Source: Romanomermis culicivorax (lineage: Eukaryota; Nematoda; Enoplea; Mermithida; Mermithidae). From it: a stretch of DNA of 64,000 nt. The notes beneath the pieces are model-generated. The model did no database searches and was not told the DNA's origin. It saw nothing but the letters and a program-made list of their open reading frames with translations. Shown piece by piece: positions 39,911 to 54,475 of this stretch (its first letter is position 1; every line of letters begins with the position of its first letter). Both the position numbers and the translations under genes were made by a program. The DNA lies in NCBI GenBank assembly GCA_963922205.1, contig CAWUHX010000263.1:248001-312000 (forward strand), given 5' to 3'.

Positions 39911-42900
39911 TCAAGGCTTTCGAGGTTGAGGAGGGGTGGGGGTAGATTGGTTAGCTGCTTTCCGAGGGTAGAAAGGGGTTGTCTCGTTTACATGCACCGT
40001 AAATGTAATATTCTTATGGGGGTGTTTGAGTGTAACATTGGGGTACATGAAATTCGTAACTGTATAGGGCCCGTTCTGGCGAGGGAGGAATTTGGGAGTC
40101 AGCCCTTGTTTACACGAATGATTCTTGTAGAGAGTAAGATCACCTGCCTTGTAATGTATGTTCTGAGCATGCTTATTATACTGACGGGTATAGTGGGCTT
40201 GGGCTTTTTGCAAACTTTTCTGCACGGTTGAGAGTGCTTCTGTAAAATGCGATTTTACACGAAGGGCGTAATCGTCTAAATCAACCATGTAGGATGTGGG
40301 GAAGAAATTTAAAGCTGCGTCTGACGGCAGATTAGCTTGCCTACCGTGGAGTAATTCAAATGGGGGATACGATGTGCTATCATTTTTAGGAATGTTGATC
40401 GAAAAAACGGCATATGGGAGATAAGTATCCCAATCGGTGTGATTTGAATTGATGTACATGCGGATACGGGTGGCTAAGGTTTGGTTGCAAGGCTCAACTT
40501 CTCCATTGGCAATGGGATGGTATGGGGTAGTATGAATTTTCTGAGTATTGCATAAACTGGTGATCCGTGAGAAGAGATCGGATACAAAATCGGAGCCACG
40601 ATCACAATGGATGATTTTTGGGGACCCATGACGGCAAACAATTTTGGTTACGAATAGCTTGGCAATAGTGGCTGCAGTGATGTCAGGGTCGGGAATGCCT
40701 CTACATACTTTGTGAAATAATCGATGAAAACGACAATGAATTGGTTGCCGTCTTCAGTGAGGGGTAACGGTCCCATGCAATCAACACCAACTCTATCAAA
40801 TGGGCCAGTCGGCTGAATTGGTACCAAGTTTGCATGTACTTTGTGCCTAAGAGCTTTTTGTGTCTGGCATGGGCGACAAGTTTTGCAGTAACGTTTGATA
40901 TCACGGCTCATTTGGGGCCAAAAATATTTTTGTCTGAGCAGGTGTAGAGTTTTTCGGGCTGCAAAATGACCTGTGAATTTGCTGTCATGATGAGAGGCAA
41001 TAAGATGCTGGACCTGTGACTTGGGAATGTATAGTTTTGCCTGTTTGTCGACTATATGGAAGAGAATGTTTTGATGCACTGCGAATTTGATCAGAGTAAG
41101 GGGGTGTTTTTGGGCGATTTTTGCTAAAATACTTTTGACAGTTTGGTCAGTGCGTTGGAGTTCGGCAAAGTTTTTCTGTTGCTCTTCTTGTTCAGTTGCT
41201 TCGACCTCAAGAACAGAATTGGTGGTGGATATTTCGGGGAGGGTTTCTAATTGTTCGATGTCAAAGGATTGGTTTGCTGTTTGTGAGGGGAATTGAGAAA
41301 CTGCATCTGCGTTGCCGTTAGCAGTGCCTTTCTTAGGGTGAATGTCTAGCTGAATACCAGAGAGGGCTAATCCCCAACGGGCAATGCGAGGGGATGGGTT
41401 TTCCTTTTGTAAAACTGCCTGGACTGCTGTGTGGTCAGTGTGTACAATAACATGTTGCTGGAAAAGATAGGGGTGGAAATACTTGACAAATTCGACTACT
41501 GCAAGGGTTTCCAACTCAGTGATCGGGTAGTTGCGTTCTGCGGGTTTCAATGTGCGGCTCCCAAAAGCAATGGGGTGATCCTGACCTTTACTATCGAGTT
41601 GACTGAGAATGGCGCCAATTCCGAGTTTTGAGGCATCAGTTTGCAGAATAAACGGTTTTGTGAAATCGGGATGCTGCAGTATTGGGGCATGGATGAGTAA
41701 TTCTTTGAGCTTAGTGAATGCATTTTGCTGTTCAGGGCCCCAGGAAAATTCGGAATTCTTTTTGAGTAGTGATGTGAGTGGGCTAGAAACTTGAGAGCAA
41801 TTTGGGATGAATCTGCGATAATATGAGGGTAGGCCAAGGAATGACTTAACTTCTTTTGAGCTTTTGGGTGTGGGTATGTCATAGATGGCTTGTACCTTAT
41901 GGGGATCTGGTGAAATGCCTTGCTGAGAAATGATGTGGCCTAAGTATTGGACTTGGGGCTGGCAGAATTTGCATTTTTGTATGTTTAGTTTAAGGCCTGC
42001 TTGTGAGAATCGGGCAAGAATAGTGTCTAAACGTTCCAGCATTTGGGCATGGGTGTCTGCGAATACCAAAACATCGTCGAGATATACAAGGCATGTGTTC
42101 CATTGCAGACCCGAAAGAATAACATCCATTAGCCTTTGGAATGTGGCTGGGGCATTGGTAAGACCGAAGGGGAGGTAGTTGGATTGATACTGGCCGGCTG
42201 AGCAATTAAAGGCCGTTTTTTCTCTGTCTGCTTGTGCTATGGGGATGGAGTAATATGCATTGGATTGGTCAAGGGATGTAAAATATTTCATTCCACGGAG
42301 GGTGTCTAGAATTTCGTCTATACGGGGTAAGGGGTAGGTATCTTTTTTGGTGACTTTGTTGAGGCCTCTAAAATCAATGCATAAACGATGCCCTCCATCT
42401 TTTTTTGGGACTAAAACTGTGTTGGTACACCATGGAGAATTGCTTTGGCTTATGACACCTGCTGCTGCGAGTTGCTCAACTTCTGCTTGTATGATTTGCT
42501 TTTCTTTTGGGGAAGTCTGATAAAGTTGTCTACGTACGGGCTGGGAGCTATTGGTGTCAATTGCATGTGAAACAAGGGTGGTTCTACCTACGTCCATTTT
42601 GGATTTAGCATATAATGTAGGATACTTCGATAGGGCGCGTAGGAGTTGCGTTTTCTCAGTTTCTGTCAGGTCACTGGAGGTTAAATTAACATTTTCCTTT
42701 AACCATGTGAATGTATCAAAACAGCTGGGTTGGTTTCGTGTGGAGGGGTTTACGTTAACGGGAGCATTTTGTTTTGGGATGTAACAGGAGACTGTACCAA
42801 TGCATGTTCCGGGGTAAAGAATTTGAGCTGTTTCTTGTGTGTTTAGGACCGATATGCATATGCGACTGTTTTGATTTTCCAAGATACAAGCTGCGAAATG

Positions 42901-42966
42901 GACTTTGGGATTCTGCTTGGGTTTCGGAGTGAATTCGAGCTGTTTAACTTGTAGGTACGATTTGGG
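39911..42966 (-). CDS. pol: Element A pol: reverse transcriptase, RNase H, integrase
   Basis: Open from 42966 to about 40690, then a frame change, then open to 39911. Reverse transcriptase shows DFRGLNKVTKKDTYPLPRID, LPFGLTNAPATFQ and the catalytic YLDD (about 42075). RNase H shows LQTDASKLGIGAIL and a later D-A-V. Integrase shows the HHCC zinc site (SHHDSKFTGHF..., CKTCRPC), then VDCMGPLPL, CDRGSDF and the glutamate in YHPIANGEVEP, making the D,D,E set. The order RT, RNase H, IN places it in Ty3/Gypsy. The frame break falls between the first and second integrase aspartates, so the copy is inactive. The pol frame is the same as that of protease and the env C-terminal half, separated by stops. 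Confidence 0.95.
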
Positions 42967-52669: not shown

Positions 52670-52755
52670 CTGTGGACAAGAAATCAATAGAGTCGTAGAC
52701 TGAGATAGATTTCTGGTTCCTACTCTAGGATCACCTGAAGAAGAAGGTAGTATAC
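52670..52755 (-). other. 86-nt intron between gag and ORF X, element B
   Basis: The donor CAG/GTATAC (52755) follows the gag stretch EPMNLS. The acceptor TTTCTTGTCCACAG ends at 52670. The intron is phase 1, and joining puts gag in frame with ORF X. Retaining it keeps the gag-to-env frame open. Element C has an intron of the same length and phase at 60488-60573. Confidence 0.65.
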
Positions 52756-54475
52756 CTGACAAATTCATGGGCTCGACCTGGTCGAGGACTTCCATGGCCA
52801 AATCCGTGGGGATCGAAGGCGGTGGTCCTGGAGGGACGATGCGGGCCGGTGGCGCCAGAGACGTCGTATTTGTGGCTGGAGCTGACTCGACAGTCGTGGT
52901 TTTGGGGATGCAATACGATGCTAGGATGTTAGCGTGGCCAACAAACTGCGGTGTCGTCGAGGGGTCCAGGGTGACCGGCATTGCATACCTTGGTGGTGGT
53001 GGTGGCAGCGGTATGTCCATTACATTTATCGGTAGGGGTACCTGAGCTGCTTGGACCACTGAAAATCCAATACTGATTACGCAGACAGGATAACACTGTT
53101 GTGAAGGATCTGTCAGGTGTTCAGCAAGTGCCTCATCATCCAGATCAAGAGGATCTGGATGAGGAGGACCATCGGTAGCCCCAACGGCGTTGTTGCAACA
53201 TATGGGCTGCTGATATTGGTTCCCCATCCCGTTAGGAGGGTGATAACCATTCCTCTGATGATAGACATTTGTCCCCTGGGAAGAATAACCAGTATTTTGG
53301 TAGTCATTCTCACCCGAGTTTGCCGGATTGCGCTGAGGACAGGCAGTTGATCAGTGCACTCGCACTTGACGACAATGAGGGCATGGCCTATCACATCGGT
53401 CCGTGGGGTGGGCACGTGTACGGCAAAAATAACAGCGACCACCGTTAGGGGTGTTGTTACCGGGAGCGGCACTGGTGGGACGCTGGGCCCGGCAGTTGGC
53501 CTCTCTATGTGTACACAGTCCGTGGAAGGAGCACGTTTGAAGGTGTGCTCCCGACGAGCGTCGCCCGGCGGACTGATTTGGTGTCGACGGCTGTGGAGGC
53601 GGCGTTTGTTGGATTGGCGCTGGTGCACGTCGCTGGGCCGTAAGCTTCGCTACGTGGGCAGTTAGCCTGGCCATTTCCTGTTTCAAGCGGCGAACCTCAT
53701 CGGCAGAGGATGACGATGTTTGAGCGTTGCTCTGACCACCGTTAGCGCTTCTGTTGGGCATATCGGGATTATATCCGGCGTGTTTGGGTTCTGAAGAGAA
53801 AACGGCGTTAGATGGTGCGGTGTACTGAATCTCATCCCGAAAGATTTGGGATTCTGCGTAACAGGCTGCCTTGAGTGTCTCTTCAAGAGTCGTAAACTCC
53901 CTAAACTTGATACTATCTCGGAGGACCGGTTTCAATCCACGCAGAAAGATAGGTTTGATGATAGAATCTCTGACATCCGTCGCGAGATCTGGATACGCTA
54001 CCCTGGATAGTCTCTTGAGGTGCTCAAGGTAGACTATCGCGGACTCTGTCGGCTTCTGCAGGCGATCTTGGATCAGCTGCTGATGCAGATCAGAGTCGCG
54101 CCCTACCGGAAAATCTCTCCGTAGAAAAGCCGTAAACTCTTCGTAGCGGGTAGGTATTGGAGTGCTGCTGCTAAAGTCCCGGTAGGAGGCAAGAGCAGGA
54201 CCCGTGAGGCATGACTCCAGAAAGGCGATTTTATACGCATGATCCGTTTCGCTTACACCCTGGAGTGTAAAGAAACGAGTAAGATGTGACATAAAATCTG
54301 TGATAGACTCACCAAAAGCACCGGAGAAGGTTGGAGGGGCCATAAAGCTGGACACGGGAGGGTGTCTCCGACCATTCATGGCCTCTAACTTTTGGTTGAG
54401 GGGTCCAAGAGCATTCTCAAATGCTGCCTGGACCTTGTTCTCGATCTGTGAAGGGAGATCAGTTTCCGACTTCAT
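52756..54475 (-). CDS. gag: Element B gag
   Basis: Starts at MKSETDLPSQIENKVQ. Capsid-like segments: FSGAFGESITDFMSHLTRFF and DLHQQLIQDRLQKPTESAIV, with YLEHLKRLSRVAYPDL, as in A and C. Zinc-knuckle region: CSFHGLCTHREANC, CYFCRTRAHPTDRC and CPHCRQVRVH; the last is cut by a UGA at 53353-53351 where C has arginine. The frame then continues in a Gln/Asn/Pro-rich tail to the splice donor at 52755. Apart from that stop it is open. Confidence 0.85.

What the first reader, a model, noticed from the sequence alone, without database searches (positions are those of the whole stretch)
39911..54475. LTR retroelements with env between gag and pol
In element A the minus strand reads gag, env, protease, reverse transcriptase, RNase H, integrase. 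Element B reads gag, env, protease, then integrase, and C reads gag, env. A and B/C have unrelated LTRs, so this is not one rearranged copy. Retroviruses and known env-bearing Ty3/Gypsy elements place env after pol. Gag and env also share one frame in A (through a proline-rich tail) and in B (1081 codons without a stop). I cannot search, so novelty is unproven.
Basis: partly seen in the sequence, partly recalled or inferred. Interest (0 to 1): 0.95.

Follow-up and report, generated by a model that had tools for sequence, protein, structure and literature searches.

The report
Retroelements with envelope gene mid-genome
In an animal genome, likely a nematode's, decayed virus-like retroelements carry their envelope gene between the capsid and enzyme genes instead of at the end, and a small predicted intron would let one transcript make either capsid protein alone or a joined capsid-envelope protein.

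Summary
The gene order is real. Element A (38985-48275, minus strand; 893-895-nt LTRs, 4-bp target duplication) reads gag, env, protease, RT, RNase H, integrase. B reads gag, env, protease, integrase; C reads gag, env, then is cut. RT is of Ty3/Gypsy type; env is a Monjiviricetes fusion glycoprotein. Between B and C, gag and env each have dN/dS 0.08, so env evolved as an element gene. Two database proteins agree: P0123 holds gag and env in one 1056-residue chain; P0003, in A's RT clade, has a membrane segment before protease-RT-integrase. The ICTV Metaviridae profile puts env downstream of integrase.

New here: the gag-env linker is written in two frames. A conserved 86-nt GT-AG interval in B and C (50-nt in A) would, if spliced, divert gag into a frame that stops before env; unspliced, gag's tail and env share a frame. 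I predict an intron-retention switch, like shGAG of plant Copia elements, governing env too. No RNA and no other copies from this genome could be examined; all copies here are broken; the key survey paper was not held. B and C show no paired LTRs, so the claim of unrelated LTRs is unconfirmed.

The parts
38985..39879 (-). 3' LTR of element A (TGTAAC...GTTACA)
47383..48275 (-). 5' LTR of element A
38981..38984 (.). target site duplication ATAA (second copy 48276-48279); the unfilled site is read at 58675-58700 in the sister repeat
39880..39890 (-). polypurine tract AAGGAGGGAAA of A
   Evidence: sequence
47360..47377 (-). candidate primer binding site of A (begins TGG; tRNA not identified)
   Evidence: sequence; inference
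46759..47652 (-). A: reading frame holding the start of gag (its upstream part runs back into the LTR)
45084..46790 (-). A: gag capsid end, zinc knuckles, proline-rich linker, signal-like segment and start of env in one 568-codon frame
45513..45562 (-). A: predicted 50-nt GT-AG intron; the spliced frame stops before env
   Evidence: prediction
43495..44967 (-). A: env, rest of ectodomain, transmembrane segment and tail (PF24664)
42967..43494 (-). A: protease, same frame as env, interrupted by stops
40648..42966 (-). A: reverse transcriptase, RNase H, integrase zinc domain and start of integrase core
39911..40753 (-). A: rest of integrase, in another frame
53351..54637 (-). B: gag (Ty3_capsid)
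49982..53350 (-). B: 1122-codon open frame, gag tail to env
52670..52755 (-). B: predicted 86-nt phase-1 intron
   Evidence: prediction
51885..52724 (-). B: overlapping conserved frame (gag C-terminal extension if spliced), ends ISSDSDEEEI-stop
49982..51856 (-). B: env, uninterrupted (624 codons from the ATG used here)
49488..49981 (-). B: protease pieces after env's TGA
   Evidence: read by eye
48420..49487 (-). B: second protease start joined to integrase (RT and RNase H missing)
60829..62447 (-). C: gag and linker (homology to B), decayed
60488..60573 (-). C: predicted 86-nt phase-1 intron
   Evidence: prediction
59892..60449 (-). C: overlapping conserved frame, ends VSSDDNDVEE-stop
59088..59758 (-). 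C: env, homology to B ends at 59088
23223..24121 (+). solo LTR of the A family (about 90% identical), duplication GTTG

Best explanation
These are decayed Ty3/Gypsy-type LTR retroelements whose genome reads gag, env, protease, RT, RNase H, integrase, with a Monjiviricetes-type fusion glycoprotein as env, and in which unspliced RNA would give a Gag-Env frame (predicted to lead on into Pol) while removal of a small predicted intron would likely divert translation to a Gag that stops before env. SHOWN: the order in A and B; LTRs and target duplication of A; env homology; equal strong constraint on gag and env between B and C; a database protein with gag and env in one chain (P0123); one with a membrane segment before protease-RT-RNase H-integrase in one chain (P0003); a linker in B and C that is conserved in one frame and depleted of stops in the gag-env frame; a conserved GT-AG interval of the right phase and length at the frame switch. 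INFERRED: that it is spliced; that Gag is the spliced product and Gag-Env the unspliced one; that signal peptidase frees Env from Gag at the internal signal, leaving Gag and Pol on the cytosolic side and the Env ectodomain in the lumen (as in viral polyproteins that run capsid then glycoprotein; recalled); that Pol follows in env's frame, past a TGA in A and B and without a stop in P0003; and that particles carried Env and could pass between cells.
For: Order and domains. LTRs, duplication, purine tract. Env family: PF24664 in A 1.6e-19, B 2.2e-15 (env alone), P0001 2.9e-14, P0002 7.8e-13, P0123 7.6e-19. Constraint: dN/dS B-C gag capsid 0.08 (256 codon pairs), env 0.08 (221), dS about 1. P0123: PF03732 1.5e-5 (above its cut-off), zinc knuckle 0.0063 (below its cut-off), signal-like and terminal membrane segments and PF24664 in 1056 residues. 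P0003: membrane segment at 37-55, protease motif at about 113, then RT to integrase; clade with A and P0004, support 100, tree of 116 rows. Two-frame linker (aligned parts of 52813-51885): frame 2 dN/dS 0.16 against 1.01 for the gag-env frame, which still has 0 stops in 193 codon pairs; stops in the gag-env frame fall below synonymous shuffles (B 0 vs mean 3.97, 14 of 5000 as low; C 1 vs 4.89, 7 of 5000), not in the third frame. Intron: 86 nt in both B and C, phase 1, CAG|GTATAC and TAG|GTAAAC, GATTTCTTGTCCACAG and GATTTCTTGTTTACAG; third-position bias before and after it in different frames and none inside; only strict conserved pair in the 3087 aligned columns. A: 50 nt, same phase and remainder, spliced frame also stops before env. 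No XXXYYYZ slip site in 52830-52560 or 60648-60380.
Against: No RNA, protein or intact copy was examined; all three window copies are broken, and in B a stop at 53351 parts the capsid half of gag from the gag-env frame. The A intron rests on one copy, and its donor CAA|GTAAGC would not pass the strict rule used for B/C. An ATG (GACGCGATG) conserved in B and C just after the acceptor allows separate initiation of the overlapping frame instead of splicing. Frame 2 of C has a stop soon after that ATG. Relaxing the donor rule gives 16 conserved pairs, 15 of them in the other aligned blocks. B and C share descent, so the two stop-depletion counts are not independent. The env-protease TGA may be decay rather than design. 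P0123's chain ends at its membrane segment, and neither its DNA nor its downstream genes were seen. P0003's membrane segment has no sequence match to env by eye; 1 other (P0018) of 32 testable pol proteins also has such a segment.
Confidence: 0.6

Rival explanations
1. Same gag-env-pol order, but the linker's second frame is a separate accessory protein started at the conserved internal ATG; no splicing of the linker is involved, and Env comes from a spliced or reinitiated message.
For: ATG conserved in B and C just inside the conserved frame; overlapping frame under constraint, dN/dS 0.16.
Against: A conserved GT-AG interval sits at the frame change with the right phase and length in both copies, with no codon bias inside it; a like design is predicted in A. 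In C a stop follows soon after the ATG, though C is decayed anyway.
Confidence: 0.2
2. Env sits between gag and pol only because broken copies of ordinary gag-pol-env elements were rearranged or nested in this repeat-rich stretch.
For: All copies here are broken; B lacks RT and RNase H and carries two protease starts; A is itself inserted in another repeat.
Against: Same order in A and B, whose env pieces are 39% identical; P0123 joins gag and env in one 1056-residue chain; gag and env equally constrained from B to C; env and protease share a frame in A and B; A is bounded by its own LTRs and duplication.
Confidence: 0.04
3. The gag-env-pol order is real, but Pol is made separately, by splicing env out so that gag joins protease-RT-integrase, with env itself acting as an intron.
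For: It would solve how Gag-Pol is made without Env in the middle; the gag-linker donor is available, and 3 acceptor-like sites lie after env in B.
Against: No acceptor-like site passed the scan between env's end and the protease in A; P0003 has membrane segment and protease in one chain.
Confidence: 0.12

Closest known systems
Ty3/Gypsy elements and errantiviruses (family Metaviridae)
   Same: LTRs, target duplication of 4 bp, gag with zinc knuckle, protease-RT-RNase H-integrase order, RT piece best matched by Ty3 among solved structures.
   Different: [quoted passage not shown] here it lies between gag and protease and matches PF24664, not an F-type family.
Anakin, BEL/Pao elements of mosquitoes with a captured chuvirus glycoprotein (PMC7642597, passages read)
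   Same: An LTR element carrying a glycoprotein of the same broad virus group.
   Different: BEL/Pao pol, not Ty3/Gypsy. The passages read define complete elements as GAG-PR-RT-RH-INT with or without the glycoprotein and place env of Roo, Tas and Cer-7 downstream of the polyprotein; they do not state Anakin's own order. A later survey found no clear capture by Gypsy (PMC10084718, passages read).
Env-bearing Ty3/Gypsy elements across animals (Chary and Hayashi 2025, eLife RP108449; not held)
   Same: Gypsy elements with type III fusion glycoproteins are mentioned by the same group in PMC13172572 (passages read), so this env class in Gypsy is not new.
   Different: I could not read whether any of its elements has env before pol; the passages seen that cite it say nothing of that order.
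Atlas virus of hookworm (PMC9094657, passages read)
   Same: Nematode LTR element coding gag, pol and env as one frame (2828 residues).
   Different: BEL/Pao, order Gag-Pol-Env, phlebovirus-like class II Env at the end.
shGAG of plant Ty1/Copia elements such as EVD (PMC8892269, passages read)
   Same: Unspliced RNA gives the long polyprotein, spliced RNA gives Gag alone; the predicted switch here would work alike.
   Different: No env is mentioned in the passages; long introns and coupled polyadenylation; here the predicted intron is 50-86 nt and decides Env as well.
sORF2 fusogens of MDG1-group Gypsy elements (PMC11952523, passages read)
   Same: A membrane-fusing protein outside the usual env place in Gypsy elements.
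   Different: Short FAST-like protein, upstream of gag or, in some Lepidoptera, downstream of pol; no resemblance to PF24664 is claimed.

Membership tests
Metaviridae (Ty3/Gypsy) | LTRs with short target duplication and purine tract | tested here: met
   Element A; not testable for B and C, no LTR pair in the window
Metaviridae (Ty3/Gypsy) | pol order protease-RT-RNase H-integrase, RT of Ty3 type | tested here: met
   best solved-structure match is Ty3 Gag-Pol, 4.4e-106
Metaviridae (Ty3/Gypsy) | env, where present, downstream of integrase | tested here: not met
   env lies between gag and protease in A and B; ICTV wording
Errantivirus | F-type envelope related to baculovirus F | tested here: not met
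   Pfam scans give PF24664 and list no F-type family up to E 0.1
Anakin (BEL/Pao with chuvirus glycoprotein) | BEL/Pao pol | tested here: not met
   Matches are of Ty3 type; caveat: no BEL/Pao reference was placed in a tree
Monjiviricetes fusion glycoprotein (PF24664) | score above the curated cut-off | tested here: met
   69.8, 54.0, 52.4, 47.7 and 67.6 bits against 27 for A, B, P0001, P0002, P0123
Monjiviricetes fusion glycoprotein (PF24664) | class III fusion fold | tested here: inconclusive
   structure model of B env unusable, mean pLDDT 33.6; weak glycoprotein B matches only
Splice-switched Gag expression (shGAG type) | spliced RNA for Gag and unspliced RNA for the long product | not testable with these tools
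   no RNA data; only the predicted intron and the frames were examined

The most novel reading that the evidence does not exclude
A lineage of infectious-type Ty3/Gypsy retroelements, at least in mermithid-like nematodes, that keeps its envelope in the middle of one Gag-Env-Pol polyprotein threaded through the membrane, with a tiny retained intron as the switch between making capsid alone and making capsid, envelope and enzymes, so that env cannot be lost without losing pol.
Probability: 0.35. Interest if true: 0.88.

Novelty: new variant of a known kind. Interest (0 to 1): 0.78.

Why it matters
In the sources read, retroviruses and LTR elements with a true env place it after pol, so env can be lost and the element can live on as a transposon. 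With env between gag and pol in a shared frame, losing env would likely break pol too, which could hold an element to a virus-like life. It also offers a directly testable way to balance Gag against the rest: retention of a small intron in a two-frame linker. And it adds a Ty3/Gypsy lineage that carries a glycoprotein of negative-strand RNA virus type.

Tried and rejected
The genome search on the window's own assembly, the main route to other copies, gave no answer 14 times ('busy or cannot be reached'). Four viral-contig scans (env alignment, P0003, A's pol piece, P0123) and one genome-contig scan (P0003) found no relatives. The structure prediction of B env with 4 sequences gave no usable model (mean pLDDT 33.6), so no fold search was made. 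tRNA and Rfam scans were empty, so the primer tRNA is unknown.

Considered and rejected: that the 656-bp repeat at 58174-58829 is the LTR of B and C (99% and 95% identical where the elements' own 5' parts are 73-77%, and no matching 5' copy); that B's 1122-codon frame is simply the gag-env protein (part of it is conserved in another frame); that the frame change is a -1 ribosomal slip at a standard heptamer (none in the stretches scanned); that the second frame is chance (dN/dS 0.16).

Paper searches: 10 were answered. No title or abstract start listed showed an LTR element with env between gag and pol, but several lists were cut at 20 (20 of 4,313, of 27, of 57). Of the 15 papers, the closest search, I opened 3. 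In 13 papers I read passages only (one also in outline); none was read whole. Most subscription papers are not held, and Chary and Hayashi 2025 could not be read.

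Full report
What is there. Element A occupies 38985-48275 on the minus strand. Its two LTRs are 96.9% identical over an alignment of 902 positions, begin TGTAAC and end GTTACA, are flanked by ATAA on both sides, and follow a purine tract. A sits inside another repeat whose uninterrupted sister copy lies at 58174-58829, which shows the empty site. A solo LTR of the family lies at 23223-24121 with duplication GTTG. Reading along the minus strand come the start of gag (frame at 46759-47652), the end of gag with zinc knuckles, a proline-rich linker, a signal-like segment and the start of env in one 568-codon frame (45084-46790), the rest of env to its membrane segment and tail (43495-44967), the protease, then RT, RNase H and the integrase zinc domain (40648-42966) and the integrase core (39911-40753). 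Element B reads gag (53351-54637), linker and env (49982-53350), protease pieces and an integrase piece; RT and RNase H are missing. Element C reads gag, linker and env; its homology to B ends in env at 59088.

Env. The env pieces match Pfam PF24664, Monjiviricetes fusion glycoprotein, at 1.6e-19 (A) and 9.8e-15 (B), with weak bornavirus G matches in both and a weak herpesvirus glycoprotein B match in A. A search of 5.8 billion proteins gave only two relatives of A's env piece among 6919 candidates: P0001 of Romanomermis culicivorax (a mermithid nematode; recalled), 52% identical over 58% of the query, and P0002 from a metagenome, 38% over 62%. This, and the AT-rich repeats, is why I call the host likely a nematode; it was not established. 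A model of B's env was too poor to use.

Env belongs to the element. Between B and C (68-77% identical in aligned blocks of more than 400 positions), the capsid part of gag has dN/dS 0.08 over 256 codon pairs and env 0.08 over 221, with dS near 1. Env was therefore kept by selection along with gag while the lineages of B and C multiplied.

The order is found elsewhere. A search with B's env, set so that proteins of about 620-1960 residues are candidates, gave one relative among 6836: P0123, 1056 residues in one chain from a 10,076-bp contig, with a gag domain (PF03732, 1.5e-5), a zinc knuckle (0.0063, below Pfam's cut-off), an acidic linker, a signal-like segment, PF24664 (7.6e-19) and a terminal membrane segment. 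A search with A's RT piece returned P0003, 1270 residues, in which a membrane segment is followed in one chain by protease, RT, RNase H and integrase. P0003 begins with leucine and so is probably cut at the contig end (inference). Among the 120 listed pol proteins (of 6297 above threshold), 32 had a protease-like motif at least 40 residues from the start, and 2 of these 32 had a membrane-like segment before it: P0003 and, weakly, P0018. In a quick tree of 116 rows, A, P0003 and P0004 form a clade with support 100; 5 of the 120 proteins (P0005, P0006, P0007, P0035, P0050) did not pass the overlap rule and are not in it. So gag with env, and a membrane segment with pol, are each seen outside this window, though not in the same contig, and only as proteins.

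The two-frame linker. Mismatches between B and C fall on third positions of the gag-env frame in gag and in env, but on third positions of another frame between about 52650 and 51885. Over the aligned parts of 52813-51885 (52366-52029 did not align) the other frame has dN/dS 0.16 against 1.01 for the gag-env frame; it has stops in 6 codon pairs, 5 in the stretch that holds the predicted intron and its edges and 1 at its end. In the 303 nt after the predicted acceptor, 69 of 100 residues are identical in the other frame against 37 of 101 in the gag-env frame. The other frame ends at a stop in the same place in B and C, just before env's signal segment. Yet the gag-env frame stays open: 0 stops in B where synonymous shuffles of the other frame average 3.97 (14 of 5000 shuffles as low), and 1 in C against 4.89 (7 of 5000), while the third frame shows no such lack. 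Both frames seem to be kept. Upstream, B has a stop at 53351 between the capsid half of gag and this frame.

The predicted intron. At the point of the frame change both copies have an 86-nt interval starting CAG|GTATAC or TAG|GTAAAC and ending GATTTCTTGTCCACAG or GATTTCTTGTTTACAG. Its ends are conserved, its middle less so; codon-position bias is strong before it (19 of 36 mismatches on third positions of the gag frame), absent inside (12, 10, 7) and strong in the other frame after it (23 of 40). Removing it joins the gag frame to the second frame in both copies, though in C a stop follows a few codons on. Under a strict rule it is the only conserved donor-acceptor pair in 3087 aligned columns; under a relaxed donor rule there are 16 pairs, 15 of them in the other aligned blocks. 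A has a 50-nt interval between its zinc knuckles and env, same phase and same remainder modulo 3, after which the spliced frame also stops before env; its donor is CAA|GTAAGC and would fail the strict rule. The host helicase gene upstream shows like sites, such as CATAG|GTAAAG and CCCTCTAG|G (read by eye). No standard slip heptamer lies in 52830-52560 or 60648-60380.

How it most likely works. Unspliced RNA is read from gag through the linker into env; the signal segment sends the Env ectodomain into the secretory pathway and signal peptidase would free it from Gag. Spliced RNA ends after a Gag with a different tail (a conserved one of about 260 residues in B and C). Pol lies in env's frame: in A and B after a TGA, in P0003 without a stop. 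Whether the TGA is leaky or decayed is open. Steps after the sequence itself are inferred; none was tested on RNA or protein.

Known and new. The ICTV profile of Metaviridae places env downstream of integrase (PMC7879559, passages). Type III fusion glycoproteins in Gypsy elements are already mentioned (PMC13172572, passages), and chuvirus glycoproteins were captured by BEL/Pao elements (PMC7642597, passages). A single reading frame for gag, pol and env is known in hookworm Atlas virus, with env last (PMC9094657, passages). A splice switch for Gag is known in plant Copia elements (PMC8892269, passages). What I did not find in print is env between gag and pol, or a splice switch that governs Env; the searches were made, their lists partly cut, and the most relevant survey was not held. 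I therefore rate it a new variant of a known kind.

Limits. Copies elsewhere in the same genome could not be searched. All window copies are broken. Host identity is inferred.

Noticed in passing
48800-49981: B carries two protease starts: LDTGCPRT right after env's TGA, and a second (VDTGAVFSL) preceded by a stretch that resembles the tail of A's env (PSVGYALVGLLRHTG against PSFGHALLELANRRG, by eye) and joined straight to integrase; B may be a recombinant of two related elements.
   Followed up: partly
38469-38984 with 48275-48419, and 58174-58829: A 656-bp repeat, 95-99% identical in two places, much younger than B and C beside it; one reading frame resembles the end of a non-LTR reverse transcriptase (by eye), so perhaps a truncated non-LTR element. 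Element A is inserted in one copy.
   Followed up: partly
29787-37676 (+): Exons of a DEAH-box-like helicase gene (DEAD 2.2e-7, HA2 1.5e-7, OB_NTP_bind 2.4e-16) with AT-rich, repeat-filled introns, just before the retroelement cluster.
   Followed up: partly
21183-22157 (-): A 324-codon mariner-type transposase frame (Transposase_1 9.3e-22, Mos1 HTH).
   Followed up: no
5093-7228 (-): Pieces of a reverse transcriptase, probably non-LTR (RVT_1 3.2e-7 in 6197-7228).
   Followed up: no
10800-11043: A near-perfect ACTG tetranucleotide array of 61 copies (98% matches).
   Followed up: no
51885-52724 and 59892-60449: The conserved overlapping-frame product (LAKKYPHLPWxLLNEP...) matches no Pfam family at E 0.1; function unknown.
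   Followed up: partly
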